Shown piece by piece: positions 10,722 to 64,000 of a stretch of 64,000 nt of DNA (its first letter is position 1; every line of letters begins with the position of its first letter). Position numbers and translations under genes: made by a program. The DNA lies in assembly GCF_016025255.1 (NCBI RefSeq), contig NZ_CP065592.1:1655122-1719121 (forward strand), given 5' to 3'. This DNA is from Sphingosinicella flava. Lineage in GTDB: Bacteria > Pseudomonadota > Alphaproteobacteria > Sphingomonadales > Sphingomonadaceae. The notes beneath the pieces are model-generated. The model was not told where the DNA came from. It saw only the letters and a list, made by a program, of their open reading frames with translations, and ran no database searches.

Positions 10722-10816
10722 TGCTGCTATGTGCGATGATACTTGGAAGAGTCTTCAGTCACTCTTGGCCATCTTTCCTTCGTCACTCACACAGCAGTCC
10801 TGAAAGACTCTTGCAT

Positions 10817-11998: not shown

Positions 11999-12137
11999 AA
12001 TCGTTCCCTCATTCGTTCCCACAGCATGAAGCGAATTTGGGCGAACGTCAACGTAGGCCGGCGAGCGTGGAGCAGCCTCGTCTACGAGGGAAAGCCCGGA
12101 AAATCTGAATGTCGGCGGATTTCAGCGAATAGGAAAG

Positions 12138-38930: not shown

Positions 38931-39689
38931 TTAGGTGCTGAGATACCATCGCTTTGTGCCCTCTAGTCCCATCGCAGTAAGCTTTCCGCTGGCGTAGGCT
39001 CCGGTATCGATTCCAATCCGGTTAGGCTGTTCGTCGACATTATGTGAGATACTGTGGCCATGAACGATCATGTAGCCATGACGGAGTTTAGATTCTAGAA
39101 ACTCCGTTCTAATCCACCTGAAATCGCTCTCCTTCTGTAGCTCAATCGGTATTCCGGGACGAATTCCAGCATGAACGAAGAGATAGTCGCCACTAGCATA
39201 CCAATTTCTAAAGCTGTCGAGAAAGCGAACGTGTTCTTCCGGAACATACTCGATCATCAAACGAATCAAATCGTCCAGTCCGCATTGATCATATTCATCC
39301 GGAGAAACTCCATAGCTAATCAGAGTTTCTCTCCCGCCAATACGGTGAAACAGACGAGCCGATTGTCGGTCACCATGATATGCGCTGACCAGAACTTCTT
39401 CATGATTACCCTTGAGGAATATGGTATTTTCGTGACGCTCCCCAACTTCGATCAGCCTATTCACCACTTCCCTTGTACTTGAACCACGGTTGACCAAATC
39501 TCCCAAGAAAATCAGTCGAGTCTCTTTTGAGCCACGCGCACGACCATCTTCCTCGACCAGACAAAGAAGGTGAACGAGGAGGTCAGATCGACCGTGAATA
39601 TCGCCGATGGCATAAATCCTGCTGCCATCTGCAACAGCGTACTCGCCGTTGCGGCGATTCCGGCCGTTTAGAATACGCTTAAGGATCAT
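38931..39689 (-). CDS. PP2A-type serine/threonine metallophosphatase
   Basis: The 252-residue protein has the phosphoesterase motifs GDIHG, GDLVNRG and GNHE in order and a distal HGHS, the PPP-family active site with two metals. The ATG at 39689 (MILKRILNGRNRRNG) is preferred over a TTG at 39740. It marks the left edge of the AT-richer polysaccharide locus and lies in the orientation of the wza-wzc arm, though 450 bases away. A role in polysaccharide regulation is only inference. Confidence 0.85.
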   Translation of the reverse strand: MILKRILNGRNRRNGEYAVADGSRIYAIGDIHGRSDLLVHLLCLVEEDGRARGSKETRLIFLGDLVNRGSSTREVVNRLIEVGERHENTIFLKGNHEEVLVSAYHGDRQSARLFHRIGGRETLISYGVSPDEYDQCGLDDLIRLMIEYVPEEHVRFLDSFRNWYASGDYLFVHAGIRPGIPIELQKESDFRWIRTEFLESKLRHGYMIVHGHSISHNVDEQPNRIGIDTGAYASGKLTAMGLEGTKRWYLST

Positions 39690-40140
39690 AAGGACGCGGA
39701 CTCTCTCAAGGCATTTCAAGGCATCGCGTGAGGTTTTCAAGTGCTAACAACGCACGAGTAGGCGAGAGCATGGTGACTGACATGCCGCCGAGGCTTTTCG
39801 CCAAGCGGCTTAGTGCCGGTCCCGAAGTATTCTCACGAGGCGCTTGAATCGACAGGCTTCATAGCGGGGTCCCTGCGGCCTGTCGAGAAAGCCCTCGCTT
39901 ACGGCACACTAGCGCAGTTACCTGTCCGCGAGAATGGTCTCTCTCTTTCGCTCTCTTGATTGCTGCCTCCCGTTCACCAGCGATCACGATGCGCGCATGC
40001 GGGAGCCAAGGGATAGCGAAGGTTAAGAAACCAGCGCCAGACGGCCGTTAGAATTCTCTCGTGAAATAGCCGCACTACATCGCACTCGGAATGACGAATG
40101 CCACCGCTCCGGCCTGTCTGCCTCATGCGAGCACTTGAGT
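39690..40140. other. about 450 bases without a supported gene
   Basis: No open frame with a credible start or family lies here on either strand. It may carry the promoter of the phosphatase gene and the 3' untranslated end of the wza-wzc arm. I see no clear terminator. Confidence 0.5.
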
Positions 40141-40542
40141 TCAGTCATCTCCGCTGGTCCGGACGCGGGTTAATCTTGCCTCTGATGCCGCTTCCAAAGA
40201 ACCCGTGAATGTCATCGCAGGGCTATAGTTGCGATCGATTCGATTGCGAAGTCGCGTTTCAACTCGGTTTGCTATTCGATTGTTGACGCGCCCCATAGGA
40301 TCCATCGCATAAGCCTGATCTCGCCCTTTACGCTTGCCTATCGGCCCCGACAGCGATTCTGCAGTTTGCCCTTGACGGGGCACAGATGCCTTGACCTCGG
40401 AGGAAACCTCATCAGCAGATTCGATATCGCCCACGAATACGTTCTGAGCTTGAACTGGAGACGCTAGCCAAATAGTTGCTGCGCACGCGAGAGCGAGGCG
40501 GCCCATTGGCGTAGCCGCATTAGAAGCCCCTGACATTCGCAT
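40141..40542 (-). CDS. small exported protein of the polysaccharide locus, unknown
   Basis: The 133-residue product starts MRMSGASNAATPMGRLALACAATIW and has a signal peptide ending in SPVQAQ. The mature part is polar and basic with an asparagine/arginine-rich segment (RVNNRIANRVETRLRNRIDRNY). The frame is open to 40611, overlapping the upstream gene; 40542 is chosen because it puts the signal peptide at the N-terminus. I recognise no family. It is the last gene of the leftward arm. Confidence 0.6.
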   Translation of the reverse strand: MRMSGASNAATPMGRLALACAATIWLASPVQAQNVFVGDIESADEVSSEVKASVPRQGQTAESLSGPIGKRKGRDQAYAMDPMGRVNNRIANRVETRLRNRIDRNYSPAMTFTGSLEAASEARLTRVRTSGDD

Positions 40543-40583
40543 CGGCGATTCACCCGGTTCAAGGAGGACAGATCCTCCGCACT

Positions 40584-41810
40584 CTATAATGCAGAACGAA
40601 GAACCACCCAATCAATTTCCCCCACCACCCCAGTGATCGACGTCGACGGCCGCGCGAGCAGGCTCAGGAATTGAACATCGCAACCCGGGGGCACGATGAA
40701 TCGACCCGTAAAGCTACCATCATTGTGCGAGGAGGGCGGCAACGTTACGCGACCCAATTCCTGCCCGTTCAAGCAACTCAGCGCCCAATAAGGCCGCGAC
40801 TGTGGCGGTTGGTCGATGCCGACGCTCCTACCTTCGATTACGTAGGGTCCTGGCGTCAACAGCTGAAGCTGCCGCAGCAACAGACCTCCAACACTCGGCG
40901 GGGCAAAAAAGTCGAATATTCCCTGTTTCCCCTTCCGTTGTATCGACGCCGAAATCCCAGAAGCCCCATCGGCCACCTCCCAATCGAAAGGGACAAATTG
41001 AACCTCAGTGGCAAAATTTCGGTCACGAGACCGAGTCCGATCAACCCCTTTGCGAAGAGATGCATAGAAGCTCCAAGCCTCTTCAAAAAGGGAAGCCTTG
41101 ACTAAAGAACTAAGCAAGTTTTGACTGGCTGTGGACGGCACAGCAACTCCCGCCGACGTCAAGCGCCTGAAAAGCTGCAGGCAGGCATTCGGGGGTGCGT
41201 TCACAGCTGCGTATTCAACGAAGTCGAGACGCCAAGGCGGATTTTTGGCTAACGTATTTGCGAGTTGAACGTTGACATCCGGCACATCAATCGCACTCGC
41301 AAGAATTGGAAAAAGCAAAGCGCGTGCTGAGCGCGACGTGCGAAGGGCGACGTCGTAGTGCTCCAGCGCAGCAGGAATATTTTCTTGAGCAACAGCATCT
41401 TCGATGAGCCACAGCCGAGTGCGGAGATCTCGTCGAGATAATGTGTTGGAATAAGTAAACAGCCGTCTCGCGAGCTCCTTGTTTCCTTGTATCTCGGCAC
41501 TGAATGCCAACGCGACAATGGCGGGTACCGACGTCGGATCTCTGCGAAGAGCTTGCGATGCCAACCTGTCGGCATCGCGGCGGTGGCGAACGTTTGCATT
41601 CAAGCCAGATCTCTTGATTGCGAGTTGGCCAGCGACGCGAGCATCATAGGGAGATAGACGATACGCCAATTCTGGCGCCTTTGCCCGGAACACATACCCG
41701 AGGGTATGGGTAATAGCATAATAGCCAATTACGGCAGCGCCTAGAGCAATTACGATCCTAATAGCCCGTCCAGCTGAGGGGCGGCGCCTCAATGCCGTCC
41801 GGCGCTGCAT
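40584..41810 (-). CDS. membrane-anchored TPR-like protein of the polysaccharide locus
   Basis: The 408-residue protein has an N-terminal membrane helix (AIRIVIALGAAVIGYYAI), then helical repeats resembling TPRs (residues about 55-260; ALRRDPTSVPAIVALAFSAEIQGN, AAVAQENIPAALEHYDVAL-type units) and a C-terminal beta-rich domain of about 140 residues. Its ATG overlaps the wzc stop by four bases. It may scaffold or regulate the export complex. No named family was recognised. Confidence 0.7.
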   Translation of the reverse strand: MQRRTALRRRPSAGRAIRIVIALGAAVIGYYAITHTLGYVFRAKAPELAYRLSPYDARVAGQLAIKRSGLNANVRHRRDADRLASQALRRDPTSVPAIVALAFSAEIQGNKELARRLFTYSNTLSRRDLRTRLWLIEDAVAQENIPAALEHYDVALRTSRSARALLFPILASAIDVPDVNVQLANTLAKNPPWRLDFVEYAAVNAPPNACLQLFRRLTSAGVAVPSTASQNLLSSLVKASLFEEAWSFYASLRKGVDRTRSRDRNFATEVQFVPFDWEVADGASGISASIQRKGKQGIFDFFAPPSVGGLLLRQLQLLTPGPYVIEGRSVGIDQPPQSRPYWALSCLNGQELGRVTLPPSSHNDGSFTGRFIVPPGCDVQFLSLLARPSTSITGVVGEIDWVVLRSAL

Positions 41811-44014: not shown

Positions 44015-44024
44015 TTAAGAGACC

Positions 44025-44735: not shown

Positions 44736-44773
44736 ATTTGTGGCTAGTCCACCAATAAGAGGTATTCGGGGGT

Positions 44774-46156
44774 CTATAGATGCTGGGATGGCGCGGGTAA
44801 AGGCGAACGCGCAGCATTCACGCCCCAGTTGAGACATAAGGCACCGAGAACAGCCACCGCCATTATCAGAGGTGTTCGCGCCGGATAATCAATCGCACTC
44901 GCGATAAGGATTAGCAGCAGCAAAGCCGCCCCAAACCTGCCGAGCCGGATCTCGGAGCTGGAAGGAGCGCGCCATACGCGAATGCTTGCGAGCCCCCACC
45001 ATGCAAGAGCCCCCGTAAGCACAAGGAGGCCACCCACCCCACCCTCGAGAACAACCTCAAGGAAATCATTGTGCGCATGGTTAAGGTAAGTGCTCTTCAA
45101 ATAGGTGTAAGGCTCGTGCAATCGATAAATCGAATCGAACGAGCCGTGGCCGGCTCCAGCCGGGAAGTAATGAAGGGCGACATCCCAGATCACTGGCAGC
45201 ACGTTAAAACGCACCTCCTCTTCTGCCGAAAGCGCAACTACGCGGTCAACAGACGCCGCGCGATCAGCAGCGATACTGACGAGCACGAAAGTTGCAACCA
45301 AAGCCAGAATACCTGCCATAAGGGCAGGAATAACCCATCGCGGAGCAGGCTTAAGTATCCGTCGCACGCTGCTCCGAATAATAATAAAACCAAGCATGGC
45401 ACCTACCAGTCCCAACATCAGTCCAGATCGAGATCCGCTTCCCAATATGATAAGGATGCACAATAGAATTAATGCTACTGCTATTGGGCTGCGGAACCCG
45501 ATTTTAGCGCTGTCTTGAAAAGCCCAGACGGGTGCCACGAGACAACCGATCGACATGAGCAAGGCGAAATGATTCCGATTAGCGAAAAGTCCACTTACGC
45601 CGCCAACATCGTTAATCAACCTAAACTTAAAGTCAATTCCAGAGAACTGTAGAAATCCGACAAACGCGTGACCGAATACTAGAAACAATATAATTGCGGG
45701 CATTAAGCGCCTCTCTGCCCTGGTCACGTTAGCAGCAAAAAGGAGAACTGCGATAGGAACTACTAGAGAAGATGCTGAATTGATCGTGGCATCGGGAACT
45801 ATCGACAAGGGTCTCCAAGGCTGACCTTGACGACTGAATTCCGCTGCGTCGGCGAAAACCGTGCGCCCAGGAAGGGCTAACCACACTTCGGGCGGCAGAG
45901 GCACCAGTTGCAGGAGAATCATCGCCAACGCAGCCGCTAAGATTATTATCACGGGCATAGCTTCGGCCGGAAACGAACGCCTCACGAAAATGATAGCAAC
46001 TAAAAGTAAAAACCACGCGATGCCCCGCACCACGACTTGCGCGAACACGTCTGGCCGAGAAGCGCCGCCAGCTATCCACAGCCCAGCCAGCAAAGCGATC
46101 AGGAGGGTCAACGACAGGCTAAACTTGGCCCACGGATAGATGGCGCGGATAGACAT
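44774..46156 (-). CDS. O-antigen ligase/polymerase-like membrane protein
   Basis: The 460-residue polytopic protein has about eleven helices and the Wzy_C/O-antigen ligase domain with the motif GVSGLFANRNHFALLMS and a large periplasmic loop ending NHAHNDFLEVVLEGG. Such proteins ligate or polymerise exported glycan repeats. The ATG at 46156 is preferred to an in-frame upstream GTG-type extension at 46297. It is the first gene of the leftward arm, divergent from the sugar transferase. Confidence 0.88.
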   Translation of the reverse strand: MSIRAIYPWAKFSLSLTLLIALLAGLWIAGGASRPDVFAQVVVRGIAWFLLLVAIIFVRRSFPAEAMPVIIILAAALAMILLQLVPLPPEVWLALPGRTVFADAAEFSRQGQPWRPLSIVPDATINSASSLVVPIAVLLFAANVTRAERRLMPAIILFLVFGHAFVGFLQFSGIDFKFRLINDVGGVSGLFANRNHFALLMSIGCLVAPVWAFQDSAKIGFRSPIAVALILLCILIILGSGSRSGLMLGLVGAMLGFIIIRSSVRRILKPAPRWVIPALMAGILALVATFVLVSIAADRAASVDRVVALSAEEEVRFNVLPVIWDVALHYFPAGAGHGSFDSIYRLHEPYTYLKSTYLNHAHNDFLEVVLEGGVGGLLVLTGALAWWGLASIRVWRAPSSSEIRLGRFGAALLLLILIASAIDYPARTPLIMAVAVLGALCLNWGVNAARSPLPAPSQHL

Positions 46157-46463
46157 AGAGAATCTCTTAGACGATCTTTCTCCGGGGGCAACCACAACGG
46201 CGAGCAAGAAGGAATCGAAGACGCAGAAGCTCCACCGTGACAGCGGCTGAACAGCTTGGGCGAACCCCCTCACGAGCCTACTTGCCCACAGCCACACTCC
46301 CTGCTAGTCGCACCAACTTCGCTCGGCGCACCTTCTTGGATCGCCGTACGCTCCGATCTGGCGAGCTCAAAGAACGTACCCAGTTGCACCACCTGACAGC
46401 GAGTCCGGAGAGCAGATTACTCTGAGAGTGGAGCTTCGAAGGAACGCCGGCCACTCAATTCGT
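46157..46463. other. divergent intergenic region of the polysaccharide locus
   Basis: The 307 bases separate the two divergent arms and must hold both promoters. Small open frames occur but none looks like a gene. I could not assign promoter elements or operators with confidence. Confidence 0.55.
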
Positions 46464-47747: not shown

Positions 47748-47770
47748 GCGCTCCTGCTTCGGAGGTATCT

Positions 47771-49075
47771 GTGATTCATGATAATTTGATTGCTAGATTG
47801 CGAGAACGATCGGCCAAGATCGGAATCGTGGGGTTGGGCTATGTTGGATTGCCGTTAGCCCTCAGATTTTCCGAAGTGGGGTTCCCAGTTGTAGGATTTG
47901 ATATTCACGCAGGCAAGGTCGCGCGCCTTAACTCGAGACAATCTCTCATCGAGCACATCTCGTCGACCCAGGTCGCGGCCGCACGTGACCGCGGGTTTGT
48001 CGCAACTACAGACTTTTCATGCGCCAACGAAGTTGACGCTCTTATTCTTTGCGTGCCGACGCCCTTGACCAAGCACCGGGAGCCCGATCTGTCGTTTGTC
48101 CTCAACACGTTGAACTCACTGCTTCCTTATCTGCGCCCAGGCCAAATCATCTCTCTGGAAAGCACAACCTATCCTGGCACCACTGAAGAAGAACTTAAAC
48201 CGCGCATCGGTGACGCAGGACTGTCAGTTGGCAAAGAGATTTTTTTGACCTATTCTCCGGAGCGGGAGGATCCAGGCAATCCTAATTTCACAACCAGTTC
48301 TATTCCAAAGATAATTGGCGGCAGCACTCCCGAGTGCCTGAACGTTGGCCTGGCGCTCTATGCCAATGTTATTGATCGCTTAGTTCCGGTAAGTTCCACT
48401 CGCGCCGCTGAATTGACCAAGCTGCTGGAGAACATTCACCGCGCTGTGAATATCGGACTTGTCAACGAGATGAAAATTGTTGCGGACAAACTGGATATCG
48501 ACATCCACGAAGTTATCGCAGCTGCGGCCACGAAGCCATTTGGGTTCACGCCTTATCAGCCAGGCCCAGGCTTGGGTGGGCACTGCATACCCATTGACCC
48601 GTTTTACTTGACGTGGAAGGCTCGGGAATTTGGCGTTCACACTCGCTTTATTGAGCTGGCGGGTGAAGTGAATTCTGCCATGCCTGACTATGTAATGGCA
48701 AAGGTTGCCGCAGCATTGAACGAGCGGTGTAAGCCGGTTAAAGGAAGTAGAATACTTGTGCTCGGCATAGCATATAAGAAAAATGTGGACGACATGAGGG
48801 AATCTCCCTCCGTCATTCTTATGGAGAAATTGCGAGAAGCGGGCGCTGTAGTCGAATACTCCGATCCTCATGTTCCGGTGTTTCCAGAGACGCGAGAGCA
48901 TCATTTTGATTTGAGCAGTGTTGAACTAACGGAACAAAATATTGATGATTTCGATTGTATTTTGCTCGCTACCGACCACGATAAATTTGACTACAACTTC
49001 CTGGCTGCACGTTCGCCCCTGATCGTTGACACACGAGGGCGCTTGGCCGCGTCGTCCAACGTGGTAAAGGCCTGA
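47771..49075 (+). CDS. wbpA: UDP-N-acetylglucosamine 6-dehydrogenase (WbpA-like)
   Basis: The 434-residue nucleotide-sugar dehydrogenase has the NAD fold [24 protein letters not shown], the active-site [15 protein letters not shown] (Cys) and the C-terminal [15 protein letters not shown]. Position before a Gfo/Idh dehydrogenase, an acetyltransferase and a PLP aminotransferase fits WbpA, which oxidises UDP-GlcNAc to UDP-GlcNAcA. A UDP-ManNAc dehydrogenase activity cannot be excluded from sequence alone. Start is GTG 47771. Confidence 0.85.
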
Positions 49076-49079
49076 GGCC

Positions 49080-50144
49080 ATGAACTTTCCCTACATACCT
49101 ATAAGAGATCGTAAGATTCGTTTCGCGCTTGTTGGTTGCGGACGAATTGCCAAAAATCACTTCGAGGCGATTGCCGCGCATGCCGACGACGCCGAACTGA
49201 TAGATGTGTGCGATACCGACGAAGAAGCTCTTGCAGCTGCAGTGAGAGCGACGGGGGCCAAGGGGCATGGCTCAATAGAGACATTACTGGCTTCCACGTC
49301 GGCCGACGTGGTGATCCTGACCACGCCCAGCGGACTGCATCCAGCTCATACGATTGCCGCCGCGCGCAGCGGGCGCCACGTGATTTCGGAAAAACCCATG
49401 GCTACCCGCTGGCCCGATGGTTTGCGAATGGTTCGTGAATGCGATGAAGCTGGGGTCCGCTTGTTCGTCGTCAAACAAAACCGCCGAAATGCGACGTTGC
49501 AAATGCTGAAACGCGCGGTGGATGCCGGGCGCTTCGGGCGGATTTACCTTGTTGCTCTCAACGTATTCTGGACTCGCCCTCAAGAGTATTATGACGCGGC
49601 AAAATGGCGCGGCACCTGGGAATTCGATGGCGGAGCAATGATGAACCAAGCGAGCCATTACATTGACCTTTTGAATTGGCTCGTTGGGCCGGTTGAAAGC
49701 GTTCAGGCTTATTCTGCGGCCCTAGGGCGTAAGATCGAAGCTGAAGATACTGCAGTGGCGAGCCTTCGCTGGCGCTCGGGAACTTTGGGTAGCCTCAGTG
49801 TAACGATGCTAACCTATCCGCAAAACTTGGAAGGGAGCATTACGGTTTTGGGTGAAAAAGGATCCGTGCGCATTGGCGGCGTGGCGGTGAACGAGGTTCA
49901 GCATTGGAACTTCGCGGAACCCGACCCCCAAGATGAAATGATCCATGAGGCTAGCTATCATACAACTTCGGTGTATGGTTTTGGTCATCCACTTTATTAC
50001 CGTAACGTCATTGATGTGCTGCAAGGGCGGGATGAACCAGAAACAGACGGGCGTTCCGGTCTCCAATCCCTTGAATTGCTGACCGCACTTTACCGATCCG
50101 CACGCGATGGTGTTCGCATAGCCCTTCCGTTGGATCGCGGTTGA
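49080..50144 (+). CDS. wbpB: UDP-GlcNAcA 3-dehydrogenase, Gfo/Idh/MocA family (WbpB-like)
   Basis: The 354-residue protein has the NAD-binding start [17 protein letters not shown], the EKP motif of this family in [10 protein letters not shown] and a C-terminal domain with [18 protein letters not shown]. WbpB oxidises the C3 hydroxyl so that WbpE can aminate it. It sits five bases after wbpA and overlaps wbpD at the stop. Confidence 0.86.
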
Positions 50145-50701
50145 TGATCGTTCACGAAACCGCAATTGTCGATCTTGGGGCCACAATCGGAATTGGCACC
50201 CGAATTTGGCACTGGACACATGTTTGCGCGGGCGCGCGGATCGGGGCAGACTGTTCTCTTGGTCAAAACGTCTTTGTAGCGAACGATGTCGTGATCGGCG
50301 ACAATGTCAAAATTCAGAATAATGTCTCGGTTTACGATGCAGTGCGACTTGAGGATGGCGTATTCTGCGGACCGAGCATGGTCTTTACCAATGTATACAA
50401 TCCTCGGTCCACTGTTTCGCGGAAAGACGAGTATCGCCCAACCCTCGTGAAGCGAGGCGCCACGCTTGGCGCAAATTGTACGATCGTGTGTGGTGTTACG
50501 ATCGGAGAGTATGCTTTTGTTGGTGCGGGGAGTGTCGTAAATCGCGACGTCAAGGCTCACGCACTAATGGTTGGCGTGCCCGCACGACGGATCGGATGGA
50601 TGTGCGCCTGCGGATTACGTCTGGCAGGTCACGGCGATGTCCAATGCGCCTGCAACCAAAGTTACATCATTGATACGGAAAGATGCAAACAGCATGGCTA
50701 A
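50144..50701 (+). CDS. wbpD: UDP-GlcNAc3NA N-acetyltransferase (WbpD-like, hexapeptide repeat)
   Basis: The 185-residue left-handed beta-helix protein has hexapeptide repeats throughout ([34 protein letters not shown]) and the conserved [10 protein letters not shown] loop and C-terminal [14 protein letters not shown] of the WbpD/WlbB family. It acetylates the 3-amino group. Its ATG overlaps the wbpB stop and its end overlaps wbpE by eight bases. The Cys-rich tail ([18 protein letters not shown]) is typical of this subgroup. Confidence 0.9.
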
Positions 50702-51806
50702 GGATATCGAGTTCATCGATCTGAAGACGCAGTATCGTATGTTGAAGCCTGCTGTCGATAAACGGATAGCGACAGTACTCGATCACGGCAGATTCATCTT
50801 GGGCCCAGAAATCCTGGAACTTGAAGAAGAGCTTGCCGCTTATGTTTCAGTCGACCATTGCATAAGCGTCGCGTCAGGCACTGAAGCATTGCTCATCGCG
50901 CTGATGGCGTTGGGCATAGGTCCCGGCGACGAGGTCATAACTACCCCGTTCACGTTCGCGGCCACTGCAGAGGTAATCGCTCTGGTGGGGGCTACGCCGG
51001 TATTTGTCGATATCAATCTGACCGACTGCAATATCGATGCCGCACTGATCGAGGCGGCGATAAGTTCTGCTACTAAAGCGATCATGCCCGTATCTCTTTA
51101 CGGCCAATGCGCAGACATGGACGCCATCAATGCGATCGCCGAACGACGAGGCGTCACCGTGATAGAGGATGCCGCCCAAAGCTTTGGTGCGCTTTATAAA
51201 GGAAGACGCAGCTGTGGGGTATCGACAATTGGCTGCACCAGCTTTTTCCCGAGCAAACCATTGGGCTGTTATGGCGACGGAGGTGCGATCTTCACATCGG
51301 ATGCCGGTCTTGCACAGGCAATGCGGGAAATCCGAATTCACGGACAGAGCAAGCGTTATCAGCATGACCGGGTGGGGGTTGGGGGTCGATTAGACACGAT
51401 TCAGGCTGCGATCCTCTTAGCGAAACTAGGCAACTTTGGGGAAGAAGTCGCCGCCCGCATAAGAATCGGTAATCGTTACTGCGAGCTTTTAGAGAATATC
51501 CCGGGTGTACGGCTAATCCAAGTGCCCGCGGACCGGACGTCGGTCTGGGGTCAGTTCACAATTTTGGTCGATAATCGCGATGAGATGATCGATGCACTGA
51601 ATGCTGCGGCCGTTCCTACAGCGGTGCATTATCCGATTCCACTACACCGGCAACCTGCCTATGCGGATAGATCCCGGGTGGTCGGGTCACTTGAGCTAAG
51701 TGAAATTGCGGCGAGGCAGGTCATTAGCCTACCCATGCATCCATTCTTAGATACCGCAGTACAGGATCACATAGTAGAGGCCATTGCCAAGAACGCCCGC
51801 AACTAA
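50694..51806 (+). CDS. wbpE: DegT/DnrJ/EryC1 PLP aminotransferase (WbpE-like)
   Basis: The 370-residue protein has the PLP features [21 protein letters not shown] (Asp) and the Schiff-base Lys in [15 protein letters not shown]. It starts [15 protein letters not shown], as in WbpE. It aminates the 3-keto sugar produced by WbpB. The ATG at 50694 lies inside the end of wbpD, so the genes are co-translated. Confidence 0.9.
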
Positions 51807-51828
51807 TGCGGGAGCCAACGCATCCTTT

Positions 51829-54983: not shown

Positions 54984-55093
54984 CAGTCTTCTTAGCTGCC
55001 CTGCCACTTAGCAACGGGACGGAGGCACGGTGGCACCCAGCCCCGGCAAAACTGATACGGATCGACTGCCACATACGCCGCTTGGAGCTAAAG

Positions 55094-56305: not shown

Positions 56306-56308
56306 GCC

Positions 56309-57469
56309 ATGGCCAACATTTTAATCAACGGCCTGAAATCGAAGGTGGGGGGGGGGAAGGTGATCTTCGACACCTACCTTCGCTTGCTCGCGGATAGCGG
56401 TCCAGAAGACCATTATTTCATTCTCACGCCTGATCGTGACGCCTACTCTCATTATGAGAGCAAGAAGCTGACGGTTATCGATGTCCCCTCCTGGGCACAT
56501 AGCAATCTCGCAACTGTCCTGCTCTATCGCGTGATTTTTCCCCGGTTGCTGTCGCGGCATCGTATCGACGCGATTCTGAACTTTGGTGACGTCGTTATCC
56601 CGTCTAACGTCCCTCAGATATACAATTTCGATTGGCCTTATGCGGTATATCCTGACTCGGAGGTTTGGGACCGACTGCGCTGGCAAGAACGCCTGCTCTT
56701 TAGTGTGAAGCAATATTTCTTCGAAAAATACCTGTCACATGCCACCGTGGTTATGGCTCAGACGGATGCCATGAAGGCCCGACTAGAAGGCCAGTATGGA
56801 CTCTCGAATGTTGTCGTGGTGCCCCCAGCCGTGGACATCCCCGTCTCAGATAATCTCAATTGGAGATTTGAGGCTCCAGACGACGCATTCAAGTTAATCT
56901 ATCCGGCCAATTACTACCCTCATAAAAATATCGAGATTTTGGAGGAGGTAGCGGAACTCCTGCAAGCCTCCGGAATGCGCACCGTGATCATGACGACGTT
57001 AAACGAAGATGAACACCCAGCTGCCAAAGTTTTCCTAGGCCGGTGTACGGCAAAAGAGCTAGACTCCGCCATCCTTAACGTCGGCCGTATACCGGAAGCT
57101 GCCGTTGCGGCGTTTTTTAGATCCGCCGATGCCCTGCTAATGCCAACCTTGCTTGAGACGTTTGGTCTGCCCTATGCGGAGGCCATGTTTCATGGCAAAC
57201 CAATCTTGACCTCAGATCGTGATTTTTCCCGCGCAGTTTGCGGGGATGCGGCGATATACTTTGATCCCCTTAACGCCAAGTCGATTGCTGATGCTGTGAT
57301 TGATTTGATAGGAAATAAGGATCTTTATCGCGTGCTGGTGAAGCAAGGTCGTGAGAGGCTCTCAACCATGTGGTCGTGGCGAGACGTGTTTAATGAGTAC
57401 CAGAGAACTATCAGTATGATCGCCACGACTACGTGGACGACCTCTCCAGTTATTCGTAATGCGGGTTGA
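56309..57469 (+). CDS. glycosyltransferase family 4, with a poly-G tract at the 5' end
   Basis: The 386-residue GT-B protein starts MANILINGLKSKVGGGKVIF and has a donor site with YPANYYPHKNIEILEEV and LLMPTLLETFGLPYAEAMFHGKPILTSD (the E-x7-E motif). Codons 13-16 (GTG GGG GGG GGG) give a run of ten G at 56347-56356, within the acceptor-domain glycine loop. A change in run length would shift the frame and inactivate the protein. It is three bases downstream of the previous glycosyltransferase. Confidence 0.9.
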   Translation: MANILINGLKSKVGGGKVIFDTYLRLLADSGPEDHYFILTPDRDAYSHYESKKLTVIDVPSWAHSNLATVLLYRVIFPRLLSRHRIDAILNFGDVVIPSNVPQIYNFDWPYAVYPDSEVWDRLRWQERLLFSVKQYFFEKYLSHATVVMAQTDAMKARLEGQYGLSNVVVVPPAVDIPVSDNLNWRFEAPDDAFKLIYPANYYPHKNIEILEEVAELLQASGMRTVIMTTLNEDEHPAAKVFLGRCTAKELDSAILNVGRIPEAAVAAFFRSADALLMPTLLETFGLPYAEAMFHGKPILTSDRDFSRAVCGDAAIYFDPLNAKSIADAVIDLIGNKDLYRVLVKQGRERLSTMWSWRDVFNEYQRTISMIATTTWTTSPVIRNAG

Positions 57470-58901
57470 AATGCCTCCCCAGCCGAGCGCGCTCTCTTCG
57501 AGTAGGGCATTGCTCCCTGTTCAACGCGTACTCAATGTAGGCGTAGGGGTTCTCTATCTGTACGTATTTAGATGGGTATATTACACCTACATTAGCGTTG
57601 AATGGGGCTATACTGGTTTAATTTACAAAGATCTAAGCTTCTTTGAATTAGCCGCCATTTACAGCTTGACGGCATTAGCTTCGTGGTTCTTGCCGTACAA
57701 ACCTGACCGGCCCTCTGCAATTATCATATGGTTTCTATATACGATAGCCTTTGTTCCATCTCTCGCGATAACGTTCATGATTGGGGCCCTTCCATACTAC
57801 ACCTATCTACCAGCCCTTTTGGCATTCTCATTGGGACTCATCTATATCAGCAGCGTCAGTAATTTGACGTTACCCCGCGAGCGATCACGACATTTTCGCG
57901 CCGACGGAAACCTCGCGACTATTGTTCTTTTCTCGTTCGGTCTGTTATCTGCGGGCATTTACTACGCGTACAGTGAAATTCTACAATTCTCCAGCGTAGA
58001 CGACGTTTACACCCAACGCTTTGCCGCGGCCGACGCCACCAGCGGTGTTATGGGTTACGTAAGGGCTTATCACAGCTACTTCTTTTGCCCTCTGATGGTC
58101 GCGATTGGCCTTTGTGATCGGTCAAAGATACTATTCGTGCCCATTGGGGTGGCCGGCTTCATTCTCTCATACATGGTCGACGCCTCCAAGATATCTCTAG
58201 TCATCCCCTTGATCATGATTGGAGCCGGAATAATATTTCGTTTCAAGGGAATTAGAACCTATCACCTGACTGCCGGCCTATCTTTGCTATGCGTAGTCGC
58301 GACCTTTTTCACACAATCTGTGAGCTTTGTTAGGTTTGTCGCCGATCTTGTTCTTCTTCGAACGATTGCTATTCCTGCCCAGACATTCGCCCAATATTTC
58401 GACACGTTCCACTTCAAGGGATATACCTGGTGGAGCAATATCACTGGAATAAATGCGATAGTCCCTCCCCCGGCTGCTTTCCAACAAGATCGTTTTTGGC
58501 CGGTTTTGGGGCAGATTGTGGGAGCCGACTATTATGGCTCGGACAGCCGTGTGAACTTGAACGCCAATCCTTTCGTCGGCGAAGGGATTGCTGCAGGAGG
58601 ACCGATCGGTGTTATCGTGGTTTCTGTGGCAATCGCCATTTTCCTGCGGGCGATTGATCGCACGTCCTCGACATGGAATTTACGGGTTTTGCTCGTTTTG
58701 ATGGTGCCGATTGGCCTCATGCTTACGAACGTCCATTTATCAACTTACATGATATCTTTTGGCGGCGCCGCATGGCTGGTGCTTTTCCGTCTCGCGAGAC
58801 CCAAATGGAACCTACTCGGGAATGTCTATCGAGATGGTCGATCCAATATTGGAAACGAGCGCCCATTAGCTGTCAACTTCCAGCAAGATACGGCTCTCTA
58901 G
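57459..58901 (+). CDS. wzy: O-antigen polymerase-like membrane protein (Wzy)
   Basis: The 480-residue protein is polytopic with about eleven helices, a long periplasmic loop near 290-375 and the repeat-unit polymerase-like segment SYMVDASKISLVIPLIM. Wzy proteins are too diverse for motif proof, so the call rests on topology and position between glycosyltransferases and Wzx. ATG 57459 overlaps the previous gene; ATG 57471 is an alternative. Confidence 0.72.
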   Translation: MRVEMPPQPSALSSSRALLPVQRVLNVGVGVLYLYVFRWVYYTYISVEWGYTGLIYKDLSFFELAAIYSLTALASWFLPYKPDRPSAIIIWFLYTIAFVPSLAITFMIGALPYYTYLPALLAFSLGLIYISSVSNLTLPRERSRHFRADGNLATIVLFSFGLLSAGIYYAYSEILQFSSVDDVYTQRFAAADATSGVMGYVRAYHSYFFCPLMVAIGLCDRSKILFVPIGVAGFILSYMVDASKISLVIPLIMIGAGIIFRFKGIRTYHLTAGLSLLCVVATFFTQSVSFVRFVADLVLLRTIAIPAQTFAQYFDTFHFKGYTWWSNITGINAIVPPPAAFQQDRFWPVLGQIVGADYYGSDSRVNLNANPFVGEGIAAGGPIGVIVVSVAIAIFLRAIDRTSSTWNLRVLLVLMVPIGLMLTNVHLSTYMISFGGAAWLVLFRLARPKWNLLGNVYRDGRSNIGNERPLAVNFQQDTAL

Positions 58902-58985
58902 CCAATTCAAACCCACGCTATCTACGAGCCGGGGTACGGTAGAGCTCGCATCGACGCTACAGAGTCTAAAAGAGGAAATCGATCA

Positions 58986-59957
58986 ATGGCCCCAGAAGGC
59001 GCTCCGACAGCCTTGGATATACGAGATGCCACTACAACAGATGGCGCTATCAGAGGCGACAGTTTGCGGCGCAGCTTCGAGGTTGCGCCCCTTCACTCCT
59101 TAAGAGAGGGCCAGCTTGGCTTTCTTTCCCGCCTTCCCGCGGACGACGCCTTAGCCGACCTTGTGACCCGCACTTCCGCGGCAACGATAATCTGCAACGA
59201 AAAGATTGCTTCCTCATGGCCCGAGGCCAGCGAAACCACACTAATCGTGGCGCAAAATCCCCGATTGTCCTTCATGCGGGCAGTCGGGAGATTTTTCTCA
59301 CAAAAAGATTGGGAGAGAGGCATTCATCCTACAGCCACTGTGGACGGCTCCGCCAAGATTGATCCGAGCGCTGCGATCGGCGCTCACTGCGTAATCGGAC
59401 CTGGCTGCGTCGTCGGGGCAGACACAAGAGTTCATCCGCACGTGGTCTTGGTAGCCGACGTTAAAGTAGGGCGGAGGGTCACCATTGCCGGTGGAACCGT
59501 GATCGGCGCCGATGGCTTCGGCTATGAACGCAATGAGCATGGCGAGCTGGAAAAGTTTCCACACATCGGGGGGGTCGTAATTGATGATGACGTGGAAATT
59601 GGATCGAACACTAGCATCGATCGGGGCACGTTGGAAGCGACATGGATCAAAGCACGTGCAAGGATCGATAATCAAGTCCACATCGCTCACAACGTGGTCG
59701 TAGGCATGGACGTGGCTATTATTGCGCAATCCATGATTGGCGGAGGTGTTCGGATCGGTGATCGGGCATGGATTGCCCCTTCGGCCACGATAATCAATCA
59801 AGTGGCAATTGGGAAAGATGCGGTAGTGGGATTAGGGGCTGTCGTTGTGAAATCGGTGGAAGACGGCGCAACCGTCATGGGATCTCCTGCACAGCCTGAT
59901 GCGGAATTTCGACAAGTTCGCGCCGCGCTTAAGAAACTGGTCAGTCATGCTGACTAG
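58986..59957 (+). CDS. LpxD-like N-acyltransferase (hexapeptide repeat), polysaccharide-locus paralogue
   Basis: The 323-residue protein has an N-terminal uridine-binding-like domain (LHSLREGQLGFLSRL) and a left-handed beta-helix with GTVIGADGFGYERNEHGELEKFPHIGGVVIDDDVEIGSN.SIDRG and IDNQVHIAHNVVVG, including the LpxD catalytic His (QVHIAHN). A housekeeping lpxD normally lies beside bamA and lpxA, so this is probably a dedicated paralogue modifying a sugar of the repeat. GAGGAA lies before the ATG. Confidence 0.85.
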   Translation: MAPEGAPTALDIRDATTTDGAIRGDSLRRSFEVAPLHSLREGQLGFLSRLPADDALADLVTRTSAATIICNEKIASSWPEASETTLIVAQNPRLSFMRAVGRFFSQKDWERGIHPTATVDGSAKIDPSAAIGAHCVIGPGCVVGADTRVHPHVVLVADVKVGRRVTIAGGTVIGADGFGYERNEHGELEKFPHIGGVVIDDDVEIGSNTSIDRGTLEATWIKARARIDNQVHIAHNVVVGMDVAIIAQSMIGGGVRIGDRAWIAPSATIINQVAIGKDAVVGLGAVVVKSVEDGATVMGSPAQPDAEFRQVRAALKKLVSHAD

Positions 59958-60708
59958 AAAGTTGAGCGGCTTCAGTAGTGCGGACTATCGTGCGCTCCTA
60001 AGGCAGCTACTCTCGCATGGCTTTCGTGATGTGAGGCTGAGTGAGCTGGAGTCAGACAAGCCTCACCTGTACCTCCGTCATGATATTGATCTCTGCCTTG
60101 AAAAAGCGGCAGCCATGGCTGAGCTAGAAGCCGAAATAGGTGTGTCCAGCAGTTATTTCGTTCTGATATCGACCGGACTCTACAACCCTGCGTCCCTAGC
60201 CAGCCGACGATTGTTGCGGAGAATTATTGAGCACGGTCATGAAATCGGTCTTCATTTTGATGCAACGCAGACTCTGCATGATGAGGATTTACAAAGTGCC
60301 GCTGCGGCCGAATGCGATATTCTCGCCGACATATGCGGAAGATCGATTCATACTATTTCGTTTCACCGTCCAGCGCCAAGTCTACTCAATTTAACCGGGA
60401 ACTTCGCCGGTCGGCGGCACACGTATGAGCCTGCATTCTTCTCTGAAATCGCCTACATTTCAGATAGCAACGGCGGCTGGCATCATGGGCACCCGTTGGA
60501 CCATCCTGCTATCGCTGAAGGCAGAGCAGTTCAGCTTCTAACTCACCCAATTTGGTGGATAGGCAGCGGTGCCCGGGAAGCTGTACCCCTCATCCGAGAT
60601 TTCGCCGATCGTCGTGCCGCAGAGTTGCATGATGACATTGCTGGGACGGTGACAGCTTATGCTAAGTGGCGCGACGACAAGGGCCTGCCGTGTGGTCGGC
60701 ACTCATAA
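59947..60708 (+). CDS. NodB-like polysaccharide deacetylase-type protein (WbmS-like)
   Basis: The 253-residue protein has the deacetylase-type YLRHDIDLCLEKAAAMAELE (metal Asp/His), EHGHEIGLHFDATQTL and ISFHRPAPS, the layout of the NodB fold seen in WbmS-like proteins of polysaccharide loci. ATG 59947 overlaps the upstream gene by eleven bases. It may remove an acyl group from the glycan or from its UDP precursor. Confidence 0.78.
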   Translation: MLTRKLSGFSSADYRALLRQLLSHGFRDVRLSELESDKPHLYLRHDIDLCLEKAAAMAELEAEIGVSSSYFVLISTGLYNPASLASRRLLRRIIEHGHEIGLHFDATQTLHDEDLQSAAAAECDILADICGRSIHTISFHRPAPSLLNLTGNFAGRRHTYEPAFFSEIAYISDSNGGWHHGHPLDHPAIAEGRAVQLLTHPIWWIGSGAREAVPLIRDFADRRAAELHDDIAGTVTAYAKWRDDKGLPCGRHS

Positions 60709-60868
60709 CAGACTCGCCATAACGGCTCGGATGTCATCCATGCTCCGCGGCGGCGGGGGATGCACCACACCGAGAAGGGCGTGACGCCTCGGCCGCGCGA
60801 GGACCCTTCAACTTTACAACATGCCGTACCGCCCGTAGGGAAAAGTCCCTGAGGAGCAGAGAGATTCA

Positions 60869-61606: not shown

Positions 61607-61677
61607 CACCTTGGCAACACGGATGTTGACAGGCCTAGTCCACACGAATCTAAGCGTCGTTTTCTTTGGATATATTC

Positions 61678-62838
61678 ATGAATATTGCTACCCCTGCCTC
61701 GAGTGCCCGATCCTACCAGATCTGCACAAATTGCATTATGGACACCTCGGACTCTCTCATTGTGTTTGATGGCGATGGACGCTGCGACTATTGCAATAAT
61801 TATTATACCAACATCTTGCCGAACTGGCATCCTGACGAGCGGGGTGAATGCGAGATCATGTCGCAAGTCGAGCAGATCAAACGTGAAGGCAAAGGGCGCG
61901 ATCACGACTGCCTTATCGGCCTGAGCGGTGGTGTTGACAGCAGTTACGTCACCTATATCGCTAAGGAAAAATTCGGCCTGCGGCCCTTGTTGTATCATGT
62001 CGACGCTGGGTGGAACTCCCAGCAGGCTGTGAACAATATCGAGAAGCTTGTTGACGGTTTAGATCTGGATCTCTTCACTGAGGTCGTTGACTGGCCGGAG
62101 ATGAGAGATCTTCAACTTGCGTTCTTTAAAGCCAATGTGCCCCATCTTGACACCCCCCAAGACCACGCTTTTTTCGCTGGGCTTTATAACTTCGCTGCGA
62201 AGAACAAGGTAAAGTATATCCTGACTGGCGCGAATTACTCGACCGAGTGCGTGCGCGAGCCGTTGGAGTGGCATTACCATGCTTCCGACCTGCGCCAGCT
62301 TAAGGACATTCATCGTCAATTCGGCACCCGCCCGCTCAAGAAATTCCCCCTCGCGGGGATTTTACGCTTCAAGGTGTGGTACCGGTTTGCGAAGGGGGTG
62401 CGGGTCGTGAAGCCGCTAAATTACGTTCCTTACCGCAAAGAGGATGCGATGCAGGAACTGGTGGACCGCTTCGGCTGGCAGCGTTACGCGCACAAACACT
62501 ATGAATCCCGCTTTACTCGCTTTTACGAAAGCTACTGGTTACCGACGAAATTCGGGTATGACAAACGACGAGCGCATTTTTCTAGCCTGGTCCTGACGGG
62601 GCAAATGACCCGGGAAGAGGCACTGCAGAAGGTTGCCGTTCCCGCATATGATCCTGAAACGATCATCCAGGACTTCGAGTACATTGCGACAAAGCTTGGG
62701 ATCACCACATCTGAACTTCGTGCCTTACATGACGCACCCAAGAAAACGTTCCGTGATTACAAGAATGACATGGCTATTATGGATTTAGGAGCCAAGGTTC
62801 TTCGCCTCGCCGGCGTCCAGCGGGCGATCGTCCGTTGA
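61678..62838 (+). CDS. wbpG: N-acetyl sugar amidotransferase (WbpG-like)
   Basis: The 386-residue protein has a Cys-rich N-terminus (QICTNCIMDTSD, RCDYCNNYY), the PP-loop ATP-pyrophosphatase motif LIGLSGGVDSSYV and GANYSTECVREP, all typical of WbpG/PseA-type amidotransferases. With ammonia delivered by HisH/HisF it turns a 3-acetamido sugar into the acetamidino form. ATG 61678 is used; a TTG at 61666 is in frame. The stop overlaps the next TTG start. Confidence 0.9.
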   Translation: MNIATPASSARSYQICTNCIMDTSDSLIVFDGDGRCDYCNNYYTNILPNWHPDERGECEIMSQVEQIKREGKGRDHDCLIGLSGGVDSSYVTYIAKEKFGLRPLLYHVDAGWNSQQAVNNIEKLVDGLDLDLFTEVVDWPEMRDLQLAFFKANVPHLDTPQDHAFFAGLYNFAAKNKVKYILTGANYSTECVREPLEWHYHASDLRQLKDIHRQFGTRPLKKFPLAGILRFKVWYRFAKGVRVVKPLNYVPYRKEDAMQELVDRFGWQRYAHKHYESRFTRFYESYWLPTKFGYDKRRAHFSSLVLTGQMTREEALQKVAVPAYDPETIIQDFEYIATKLGITTSELRALHDAPKKTFRDYKNDMAIMDLGAKVLRLAGVQRAIVR

Positions 62839-63449
62839 CCACGATTGTTGACTACGGTCTGGGGAACATCGGCGCGTTCCTCAACATGTACAAGAGAATG
62901 AATCTGCCCGCCAAGGCGGCGCGTACAGCTGAGGAATTGCGCGATGCTGAGCGGATCATCCTGCCAGGCGTCGGCGCATTCGATCACGCGATCGAGTTAC
63001 TCGATGCGTCCGGGATGCGGCCGCTGCTTGAGGAAAAGGTCATTCACGAGAAGGTCCCCGTTATTGGCGTCTGCGTTGGCATGCAGATCTTAGCTGACAC
63101 AAGCGAGGAAGGCGAGGGACCAGGCTTGGGTTGGATCCCTGGGATTGTTCGCCATTTTCGTTCCATGCCGGCCCCGAACGACCTACCGCTTCCGCATATG
63201 GGCTGGAACGATGTGGAACCGCGTGGTGAAGAAAAGCTCTTCCGCGGCCTAGAGCGCGATGCACGTTTCTACTTCCTACATTCCTTCTATTACGAATGCG
63301 CCAACCTGTCCGATAGGGTTGCCACCGCGACTTACGGGTCGCCGTTCGCCTGCGCAGTTCGGCGCGATAATGTGTGGGGGGTCCAGTTTCACCCGGAAAA
63401 GAGCCATCACTTCGGTGCGATGCTGCTTAAGAATTTTGCGGAGATTTAG
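62835..63449 (+). CDS. hisH2: HisH paralogue, glutamine amidotransferase subunit for sugar amidation
   Basis: The 204-residue class I amidotransferase has the nucleophile Cys in GVCVGMQIL, His/Glu in VQFHPEKS and the N-terminal IVDYGLGNIGAF of HisH. It starts at TTG overlapping the wbpG stop. In this context it supplies ammonia to WbpG, not to histidine synthesis, since no other his gene is near. Confidence 0.92.
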   Translation: MTTIVDYGLGNIGAFLNMYKRMNLPAKAARTAEELRDAERIILPGVGAFDHAIELLDASGMRPLLEEKVIHEKVPVIGVCVGMQILADTSEEGEGPGLGWIPGIVRHFRSMPAPNDLPLPHMGWNDVEPRGEEKLFRGLERDARFYFLHSFYYECANLSDRVATATYGSPFACAVRRDNVWGVQFHPEKSHHFGAMLLKNFAEI

Positions 63450-63452
63450 GAC

Positions 63453-64000
63453 GTGCTACGGCCTCGCGTTACTCCTTGCCTGCTGATCCATGAAGGCGGC
63501 CTTGTGAAAACGGTGGGTTTTAAGGATCCAAAATACGTCGGCGACCCGATTAACGCGGTGAAAATATTTAACGAGAAAGAGAGTGACGAACTTATCGTTC
63601 TCGACATTGATGCAACTGTGCAGGGGGTGGAGCCAGACTACAAAGTAATCGCACATCTGGCGGCCGAATGCAGAATGCCACTCTGTTACGGCGGCGGTGT
63701 ACGCACCGCCGAGCAGGCGAAGCACATCATTGGTCTTGGAGTCGAGAAGGTGGCTCTCAGCGCTGCAGCCGTGGAGCGGCCGGAGCTGATCAATGAGATC
63801 GCCGTCGAGATTGGACGCCAGAGCGTCGTCGTTGTGCTCGATCTGAGGAAGAAGAGGCTCAGCGGATATGAACTGCGAACACACAACGGGAGCCGTGCCC
63901 ACAGGCTTGATCCCGTGACCTTCGCGCAAGATGCGGTTCAACTGGGCGCTGGCGAGATTGTCGTTAATTCTATCGACCTTGATGGAACGATGCGCGGCTA
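63453..64000 (+). CDS. hisF2: HisF paralogue (3' truncated by the window end)
   Basis: The frame from GTG 63453 is open to the last base and shows VLRPRVTPCLLIHEGGLVKTVGFKDP, then LIVLDIDAT, CYGGGVRTAEQA and VVNSIDLDGTM, which are HisF TIM-barrel signatures. It pairs with the hisH paralogue three bases upstream to channel ammonia to WbpG. About 182 of the expected 250 residues are inside the window. Confidence 0.93.
   Translation, partial: MLRPRVTPCLLIHEGGLVKTVGFKDPKYVGDPINAVKIFNEKESDELIVLDIDATVQGVEPDYKVIAHLAAECRMPLCYGGGVRTAEQAKHIIGLGVEKVALSAAAVERPELINEIAVEIGRQSVVVVLDLRKKRLSGYELRTHNGSRAHRLDPVTFAQDAVQLGAGEIVVNSIDLDGTMRG

What the first reader, a model, noticed from the sequence alone, without database searches (positions are those of the whole stretch)
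38931..64000. Polysaccharide locus predicted to build an acetamidino 2,3-diamino uronic acid
WbpA-WbpB-WbpD-WbpE homologues in order (47771-51806) should make UDP-2,3-diacetamido-glucuronic acid. WbpG with its own HisH/HisF (61678-64000) should convert the 3-acetamido group to acetamidino. In Pseudomonas aeruginosa O5 this chemistry builds B-band O-antigen. Here it sits in a sphingomonad-type Wza/Wzc exopolysaccharide locus with an LpxD paralogue, a deacetylase-like protein, a methyltransferase and a beta-helix enzyme. This combination may specify an undescribed glycan.
Basis: partly seen in the sequence, partly recalled or inferred. Interest (0 to 1): 0.72.

Follow-up and report, generated by a model that had tools for sequence, protein, structure and literature searches.

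The report
L-FucNAm and diamino-uronate exopolysaccharide island
A sphingomonad carries an island of genes for a surface polysaccharide that most likely contains two separate rare sugars, an acidic 2,3-diamino uronic acid and a basic amidino-fucosamine, rather than one sugar carrying both modifications.

Summary
The genes are real: a low-GC (50-57%) island in a sphingomonad genome of about 65% GC, from about 38.4 kb to about 71 kb (7 kb past the window). WbpA, WbpB, WbpD and WbpE are confirmed and should make UDP-GlcNAc3NAcA. Directly beyond 64000, WbuX-HisH-HisF continue into FnlA-FnlB-FnlC and a WbuB-like GT, the UDP-L-FucNAc pathway, in the gene order of E. coli O145, whose WbuX is reported to make L-FucNAm. 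The island 2-epimerase scores twice as high against CapG as against the UDP-GlcNAc3NAcA 2-epimerase, and no WbpI-like enzyme was found in the genome. Of 73 named relatives with enough downstream sequence, 61 have FnlA or FnlC within 9 kb of WbuX. One sphingomonad plasmid has the module without WbpABDE; another has both, plus LpxD-like and deacetylase-like genes. Predicted polymer: zwitterionic, D-GlcNAc3NAcA plus L-FucNAm. The "LpxD paralogue" is the genome's only strong LpxD match, in an order where LpxC was found in 0 of 296 genomes; a sugar N-acyltransferase is likelier. Most novel: a methyltransferase beside WbuX in four other genomes (a fifth has it in the same operon) that may N-methylate the amidine.

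The parts
40141..40611 (-). small protein of unknown function at the end of the wza-wzc operon; weak homologue (42%, 64 bits) in the same place in S. hankookensis L004
40584..41810 (-). accessory protein next to Wzc, function unknown (only sub-threshold TPR-type Pfam matches)
   Evidence: 50% identical homologue beside Wzc in L004
41810..44014 (-). Wzc: Wzz/GNVR chain-length domain plus kinase-type P-loop domain
   Evidence: Pfam; 76% identical in L004
44025..44837 (-). Wza: outer-membrane polysaccharide export (Poly_export, SLBB)
   Evidence: Pfam
44774..46297 (-). Wzy_C family O-antigen ligase/polymerase-like protein
   Evidence: Pfam PF04932
46428..47747 (+). initiating polyisoprenyl-phosphate sugar-phosphate transferase (PHPT)
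   Evidence: PF02397; TIGR03025 286 bits, just under its 296 cut-off
47771..49075 (+). WbpA-like nucleotide-sugar 6-dehydrogenase
   Evidence: TIGR03026 416 bits; 80% identical in L158
49080..50144 (+). WbpB/WlbA-like 3-dehydrogenase, of the type of PDB 3q2k/3q2i
50141..50701 (+). WbpD/WlbB-like 3-N-acetyltransferase (hexapeptide)
   Evidence: PDB 3mqg, 257 bits
50571..51806 (+). WbpE-like 3-aminotransferase (true start probably near 50694, by eye)
   Evidence: PDB WbpE 3nyu, 440 bits
51784..53139 (+). presumed Wzx flippase
   Evidence: inferred from sequence and position; no Pfam match; 67% identical fragment in L074
53136..54983 (+). right-handed beta-helix protein, probably secreted (signal-like N-terminus, by eye); possible lyase or hydrolase of the polymer
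   Evidence: Pfam Beta_helix; 44% identical homologue in L074
55082..56305 (+). GT4 glycosyltransferase
   Evidence: Pfam
56309..57469 (+). GT4 glycosyltransferase
   Evidence: Pfam
57459..58901 (+). presumed Wzy polymerase
   Evidence: inferred; no Pfam match; homologues in other WbuX loci
58986..59957 (+). LpxD-like N-acyltransferase; proposed sugar N-acyltransferase, not lipid A synthesis
59944..60708 (+). putative NodB-like deacetylase, paired with the LpxD-like gene
   Evidence: motifs RHD[IV]D and GHEI..H in 4 of 4 aligned rows; same pair in L004
60869..61606 (+). class I SAM methyltransferase tied to WbuX; proposed N-methylation of the amidine, or O-methylation
61678..62838 (+). WbuX-type N-acetyl sugar amidotransferase (CxxC, CxxC and SGGVDS motifs)
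   Evidence: TIGR03573; motifs; tree
62835..63449 (+). HisH-like glutaminase (WbuY), one of two HisH in the genome
63453..64000 (+). HisF2/WbuZ; the gene ends at window-coordinate 64229. Beyond it: FnlA 64243-65283, FnlB 65280-66380, FnlC about 66386-67519, WbuB-like GT4 67523-68761
   Evidence: L002; NCBIfam; PDB

Best explanation
The island directs a Wzx/Wzy-type surface or exo-polysaccharide with two independent rare-sugar modules. (a) WbpA-B-E-D convert UDP-GlcNAc to UDP-2,3-diacetamido-2,3-dideoxy-D-glucuronic acid, used in the gluco form because no WbpI was found. (b) FnlA-B-C make UDP-L-FucNAc; HisH releases ammonia from glutamine, HisF2 channels it, and WbuX, using ATP, turns the 2-acetamido group into acetamidino, giving L-FucNAm, which the neighbouring WbuB-like GT4 adds to the repeat unit. 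An initiating transferase and three GT4 enzymes fit a repeat of about four sugars; Wza and Wzc export it. Acid (uronate) plus base (amidine) makes the polymer zwitterionic. The LpxD-like, deacetylase-like and methyltransferase genes tailor an amino sugar further, most likely the FucNAm. Shown here: gene content, families, gene order and recurrence. Inferred: every reaction, the stage of amidination, the repeat size and the tailoring roles.
For: HisF2, FnlA (607 bits; under its 730 cut-off), FnlB (539; above its 500 cut-off), a WecB-family FnlC and a WcaI-like GT4 follow HisH. PDB: FnlB matches Cap5F at 337 bits; FnlC matches CapG at 418 against 210 for the UDP-GlcNAc3NAcA 2-epimerase. E. coli O145 has the same gene order, 54-73% identical from WbuX to FnlC, and its WbuX is cited as acting on L-FucNAc (PMC10607449 passage); [quoted passage not shown] Of 79 named WbuX loci, 73 have at least 6 kb downstream; 61 of 73 have FnlA or FnlC within 9 kb and 57 of 73 have both. 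At least two of WbpB/D/E lie within 10.5 kb in 12 of 79; FnlA is beside WbuX in all 12 (11; L077, cut by the contig end). In the tree, window WbuX sits in a 100/99 clade with three Sphingomonas rows, inside a 100/99 group of 90 rows that holds the E. coli O145 row and none of the six rows with HisH-HisF-WbuX order. A plasmid read in full has module (b) with legionaminate-type genes; its best matches to WbpE and WbpD are 27% and 26% and WbpA and WbpB give none.
Against: No biochemistry or polymer structure exists for this organism. 12 of 73 relatives have no FnlA or FnlC within 9 kb of WbuX, some with WbuX up to 79% identical (L085, L093), so WbuX of this group may sometimes act on another sugar; the 90-row group holds 20 rows labelled with neither pathway. 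Four loci with WbuX-HisH order (L064-L067) fall outside that group, so order alone does not define it. FnlA scores below its NCBIfam equivalog cut-off, and the GT of E. coli O145 is only 22% identical to the window's WbuB-like GT. The recurrent company of WbpBDE would also fit an enzyme acting on both sugars. The tree tool warns of long branches, and no named P. aeruginosa WbpG row was in it.
Confidence: 0.8

Rival explanations
1. One reading: the amidotransferase converts the 3-acetamido group of the 2,3-diacetamido uronic acid, as WbpG does in P. aeruginosa O5.
For: WbpA/B/D/E are present; WbpG and WbuX are one family (PMC10607449 passage); 12 of 79 named WbuX loci also hold at least two of WbpB/D/E.
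Against: FnlABC adjoin the trio; in all 12 of those loci FnlA is there too; the trio occurs with FnlABC and without WbpABDE on a plasmid read in full; no WbpI-like epimerase was found; gene order is WbuX-HisH-HisF, not the recalled hisH2-hisF2-wbpG of PAO1.
Confidence: 0.08
2. The trio is promiscuous and amidinates both L-FucNAc and the 3-acetamido group of the uronic acid.
For: Co-occurrence of the two modules in 12 of 79 named loci and in S. hankookensis.
Against: One WbuX match only in the genome; I know of no precedent for one enzyme on both sugars (recall, not searched).
Confidence: 0.06
3. The FucNAm is further altered: the deacetylase-like and LpxD-like pair exchange the N-acyl group of an amino sugar, and the WbuX-linked methyltransferase N-methylates the amidine, as orf8 does on legionaminic acid in Legionella.
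For: LpxD-like and deacetylase-like genes sit together between HisH and HisF in L004 and together before the methyltransferase and WbuX here; methyltransferase next to WbuX in L096, L100, L107, L111 and between FnlC and the GT in L081; no methyltransferase match at E 1e-10 other than its own in 296 order and 385 class genomes; orf8 precedent (PMC13306086 passages).
Against: Only two loci seen carry the full acyltransferase-deacetylase pair, and one of them (S. hankookensis, plasmid read in full) has no methyltransferase match; the fold search returns O-, N- and C-methyltransferases; an LpxD-like relative also lies near WbpB (L134), so the uronic acid could be the target; the Legionella enzyme was not compared.
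Confidence: 0.2

Closest known systems
E. coli O145 O-antigen wbuX-wbuY-wbuZ-fnlA-fnlB-fnlC-wbuB (L-FucNAm)
   Same: Same gene order; 54-73% protein identity from WbuX to FnlC.
   Different: There it belongs to an LPS O-antigen with neuB/neuC genes; here to a Wza/Wzc polymer of a bacterium without LpxC, beside WbpABDE and three tailoring genes that gave no match in the O145 stretch read; GT only 22% identical.
P. aeruginosa O5 wbpABDEI with hisH2-hisF2-wbpG (ManNAc3NAmA)
   Same: WbpA/B/D/E chemistry to UDP-GlcNAc3NAcA.
   Different: No WbpI-like epimerase found; amidotransferase trio attached to FnlABC and in another order (PAO1 order recalled); WbpB is of the 3q2k/3q2i type.
Sphingomonas hankookensis plasmid pSZ.B2R2_2 polysaccharide genes (NZ_CP117027.1)
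   Same: WbpA-B-D-E, WbuX-HisH-HisF, FnlABC, WbuB-like GT, LpxD-like, deacetylase-like, Wza and Wzc all present, 42-88% identical over the genes matched in these blocks.
   Different: Plasmid-borne and in two blocks; no methyltransferase or beta-helix match in the whole plasmid; LpxD-like and deacetylase-like genes lie between HisH and HisF.
Sphingomonas sp. LM7 Cluster B (PMC11340318)
   Different: WbuX-HisF2-HisH in that order; no FnlABC named in the passages seen, though these list only genes that were hit, and an SDR oxidoreductase and an epimerase are among them; polymer structure not given in the passages seen.

Membership tests
L-FucNAm module (WbuXYZ with FnlABC, E. coli O145 type) | WbuX amidotransferase with CxxC/CxxC and SGGxDS motifs | tested here: met
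   Motifs at residues 16, 36 and 83; TIGR03573 above cut-off
L-FucNAm module (WbuXYZ with FnlABC, E. coli O145 type) | Dedicated HisH and HisF2 subunits beside WbuX | tested here: met
   two HisH in the genome
L-FucNAm module (WbuXYZ with FnlABC, E. coli O145 type) | FnlA, FnlB and FnlC for UDP-L-FucNAc in the same operon | tested here: met
   FnlB above cut-off, FnlA strong though under its equivalog cut-off; FnlB's best solved match is Cap5F; FnlC's are 4hwg, named only UDP-GlcNAc 2-epimerase, and CapG
L-FucNAm module (WbuXYZ with FnlABC, E. coli O145 type) | L-FucNAm in the polymer | not testable with these tools
   Needs NMR or mass spectrometry
P. aeruginosa O5 ManNAc3NAmA pathway | WbpA, WbpB, WbpE and WbpD homologues | tested here: met
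P. aeruginosa O5 ManNAc3NAmA pathway | WbpI-type UDP-GlcNAc3NAcA 2-epimerase | tested here: not met
   Island epimerase is CapG-like; the other WecB-family match is closest to WecB 1f6d (268 bits; 8sxy 152)
P. aeruginosa O5 ManNAc3NAmA pathway | Amidotransferase genes in hisH2-hisF2-wbpG order with the wbp genes (order recalled) | tested here: not met
   Order is WbuX-HisH-HisF-FnlABC
Lipid A LpxD | Works in a genome with LpxC | tested here: not met
   LpxC found neither here nor in any of 296 order genomes; the same search finds it in 4 of 14 control genomes, E. coli and Caulobacter among them
Lipid A LpxD | Family score and catalytic residues | tested here: inconclusive
   Above the cut-off of the subfamily model NF002060 (251, cut-off 207) but under that of the equivalog TIGR01853 (226, cut-off 242.5); HxAH motif kept, but the position of the second His (recalled as E. 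coli H276) reads Q or K in the window, L004, L134 and L088 rows
CE4/NodB polysaccharide deacetylase | Recognised NodB domain or fold | tested here: inconclusive
   No significant Pfam or PDB sequence match; single-sequence model too poor, pLDDT 43; motifs only
Sphingan (gellan-type) cluster | Rhamnose genes and sphingan glycosyltransferases | not tested
   No rml or sphingan GT search was run

The most novel reading that the evidence does not exclude
The island makes a zwitterionic polysaccharide carrying a modified amidino-L-fucosamine not yet described: the WbuX-linked methyltransferase N-methylates the acetamidino group, and the deacetylase-like/LpxD-like pair, a lipid A-type acyltransferase recruited in a lineage where no LpxC is found, replaces the N-acyl group before amidination.
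Probability: 0.15. Interest if true: 0.55.

Novelty: new variant of a known kind. Interest (0 to 1): 0.35.

Why it matters
It corrects the assignment of an amidotransferase: gene neighbours, here just outside the window, decide whether the amidine goes on a uronic acid or on fucosamine. The pairing of a diamino uronic acid module with an L-FucNAm module recurs in named Sphingomonas, Pelomonas, Devosia, Nitrobacter and Janthinobacterium loci, among others (12 of 79), so a zwitterionic polymer of this kind may be widespread in environmental bacteria. It also points to two testable tailoring steps: a WbuX-linked methyltransferase, and an LpxD-family enzyme in an order where no LpxC was found.

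Tried and rejected
Rejected: the acetamidino 2,3-diamino uronic acid as one sugar; LpxD as a lipid A paralogue; a WbpI elsewhere in the genome.

Led nowhere: single-sequence fold of the deacetylase-like protein (pLDDT 43); no relatives of it in viral contigs and no PDB sequence match. The methyltransferase model (pLDDT 80) matched O-, N- and C-methyltransferases alike. No repeat of 12 bases or more was found between the tRNA-Phe stretch and the left boundary. Scans for the methyltransferase in 296 order and 385 class genomes found only the own copy at E 1e-10, so how it behaves away from WbuX could not be measured. One search covered the wrong strand of the second WecB and is void; one search is the right one. 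One search was a script failure (file not found).

Rows left out: of 106 WbuX hits, 5 below 300 bits (two L072 pieces, L046, L047, L070) were dropped, leaving 101 rows: 79 named, 18 from 17 of the 32 order regions fetched, and L002, L004, L005 and L152 (recounted). The other order regions hold more distant family members or the dropped hits.
Full report
Observation. ORF calling, translation and family scans confirm the gene list. WbpA, WbpB, WbpD and WbpE lie in order; WbpE's best solved match is WbpE 3nyu (440 bits), WbpD's is 3mqg (257 bits), and WbpB's are 3q2k and 3q2i (590 and 577 bits), with WbpB 3oa2 at 34 bits. I recall 3q2k/3q2i as Bordetella and Chromobacterium WlbA; the PDB names shown are only 'oxidoreductase' and 'dehydrogenase'. 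Passages of PMC10622841 state the pathway through WbpE, WbpD and WbpI and that the Bordetella and Chromobacterium 3-dehydrogenases work by sequential mechanisms.

The island. GC falls from about 65% to 51-56% (2-kb steps) at 38 kb and stays at 50-57% (1-kb steps) until L002 position 10 kb, window-coordinate about 71 kb, where a tRNA-Phe and a resolvase-like ORF lie. The left-flank gene looks like NAD synthase (by eye); 12 congeners have it. The roughly 19 kb downstream of it in 10 of these 12 show GC of 0.61-0.72 and no island genes apart from one weak FnlA-type hit at 26%. The island's right-hand flank genes were seen there in only one (L176, one gene at 61%), so an empty site is not shown; gain in this lineage is the simplest reading. 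The genome is one contig of 2.42 Mb at 99.94% completeness.

Past the window. The trio WbuX-HisH-HisF2 runs on into FnlA, FnlB, FnlC and a GT4. FnlB is above the curated cut-off for UDP-2-acetamido-2,6-beta-L-arabino-hexul-4-ose reductase and matches Cap5F. FnlC scores 418 bits against CapG and 210 against the UDP-GlcNAc3NAcA 2-epimerase; the top hit, 4hwg (427 bits), is named only UDP-GlcNAc 2-epimerase. The only other WecB-family match in the genome is closest to WecB 1f6d (268 bits; 152 for the UDP-GlcNAc3NAcA 2-epimerase). So no WbpI was found, and the WbuX neighbours form the UDP-L-FucNAc pathway.

Comparison. E. coli O145 strain RM9872 has amidotransferase-hisH-hisF2-fnlA-wbjC-wecB-GT4 in the same order, 54-73% identical from WbuX to FnlC, with the GT at 22%. 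PMC10607449 (passages) says WbpG of P. aeruginosa O5 forms ManNAc3NAmA and WbuX of E. coli O145 forms L-FucNAm; [quoted passage not shown] The original O145 paper was not held.

Recurrence. A genome scan gave 79 named loci. Of the 73 with at least 6 kb downstream, 61 have FnlA or FnlC within 9 kb and 57 have both. By identity to window WbuX: 37 of 44 at 70% or more, 4 of 6 at 60-70%, 20 of 23 at 45-60% (FnlA or FnlC). The bit-score limits make these lower bounds. Twelve of 79 also have at least two of WbpB, WbpD and WbpE, and FnlA lies by WbuX in all 12 (11; L077, where the contig ends inside the operon). The scan was seeded with this WbuX, so it samples its own group; other members of the family in the order have different neighbours, and 34 of 296 order genomes have some family member.

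Tree. Among 101 WbuX rows the window's row sits in a 100/99 clade with L073, L004 and L074, all Sphingomonas with FnlABC. The E. coli O145 row lies in the same larger group of 90 rows (100/99 branch). All six rows with HisH-HisF-WbuX order fall outside it; so do four loci with the window's order (L064-L067), and 20 rows inside it carry neither label. The tool warns that long branches meet, and no named WbpG row was available.

Independence of the modules. Sphingomonadaceae bacterium OTU29THOMA1 carries the WbuX-HisH-HisF-FnlABC-WbuB block on a 65 kb plasmid with legionaminate-type genes; over the whole plasmid the best matches to WbpE and WbpD are 27% (118 bits) and 26% (42 bits), and WbpA and WbpB give none. 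Its chromosome was not searched. S. hankookensis plasmid pSZ.B2R2_2 carries both modules in two blocks. This fits two sugars rather than one.

Tailoring genes. LpxC is found neither in this genome nor in any of 296 order genomes, while E. coli and Caulobacter controls score. The LpxD-like protein is the only strong LpxD match in the genome; one other of 296 genomes has a match at E 1e-25, 33% identical. It passes the LpxD subfamily cut-off (NF002060) but not the equivalog's (TIGR01853). It keeps the HxAH motif; the position of the second catalytic His (recalled from E. coli LpxD) is Q or K in the window, L004, L134 and L088 rows. It is paired with the deacetylase-like gene here and in L004, where the pair stands between HisH and HisF. 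The methyltransferase lies directly before WbuX in L096, L100, L107 and L111 and after FnlC in L081, 57-60% identical, and no other match at E 1e-10 was found in 296 (order) or 385 (class) genomes. It gives no match in the S. hankookensis plasmid. PMC13306086 (abstract and passages) reports that orf8 of L. [quoted passage not shown] this is the precedent for the proposed role, and no sequence comparison was made.

Prior art. PMC11340318 (passages) describes Cluster B of Sphingomonas sp. LM7, in which transposon hits in genes for nucleotide-sugar dehydrogenase, aminotransferase, WxcM acetyltransferase, MviM dehydrogenase, WbuX, HisF2 and HisH affected colony morphology, and concludes that it makes a cell-surface-associated polysaccharide. 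So WbuX with Wbp-type genes in a sphingomonad is in print; FnlABC was not named in the passages I saw. The searches listed no paper whose title or shown abstract describes GlcNAc3NAcA with FucNAm in one polymer; most hits were seen as listings with the start of the abstract only, and most subscription journals are not held.

Verdict. A real polysaccharide island, partly misread: two rare sugars, D-GlcNAc3NAcA and most likely L-FucNAm. It is a new combination of known modules; the methyltransferase and the acyltransferase-deacetylase pair are its least known parts.

Noticed in passing
window 8000-12228: GC dips to 56-58% beside tRNA-Ser 12138-12228, with a phage-type integrase at 10817-12022 and a DUF2280 protein at 8286-8858: probably a second, small integrated element.
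   Followed up: partly
L002:9578-10375 (window-coordinate 70456-71253): 265-aa ORF with a DUF2924 stretch followed by a resolvase domain matched only from profile position 13 on, next to tRNA-Phe at the right end of the island; may be a remnant of the element that brought it in.
   Followed up: partly
window 38931-39740: Calcineurin-like phosphoesterase at the left edge of the island; a 48% identical gene lies on the other strand near the FucNAm operon of Sphingomonas sp. R-74633 (L084).
   Followed up: no
   Followed up: no
L046, L049, L051, L053, L055, L057 (order genomes): Distant amidotransferase-family genes (22-27% identical to window WbuX; no match listed in L057) beside HisH and WbpE-like aminotransferases; in G114, G148, G237, G271 and G287 two family members lie within about 5 kb. 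Substrate unclear.
   Followed up: no
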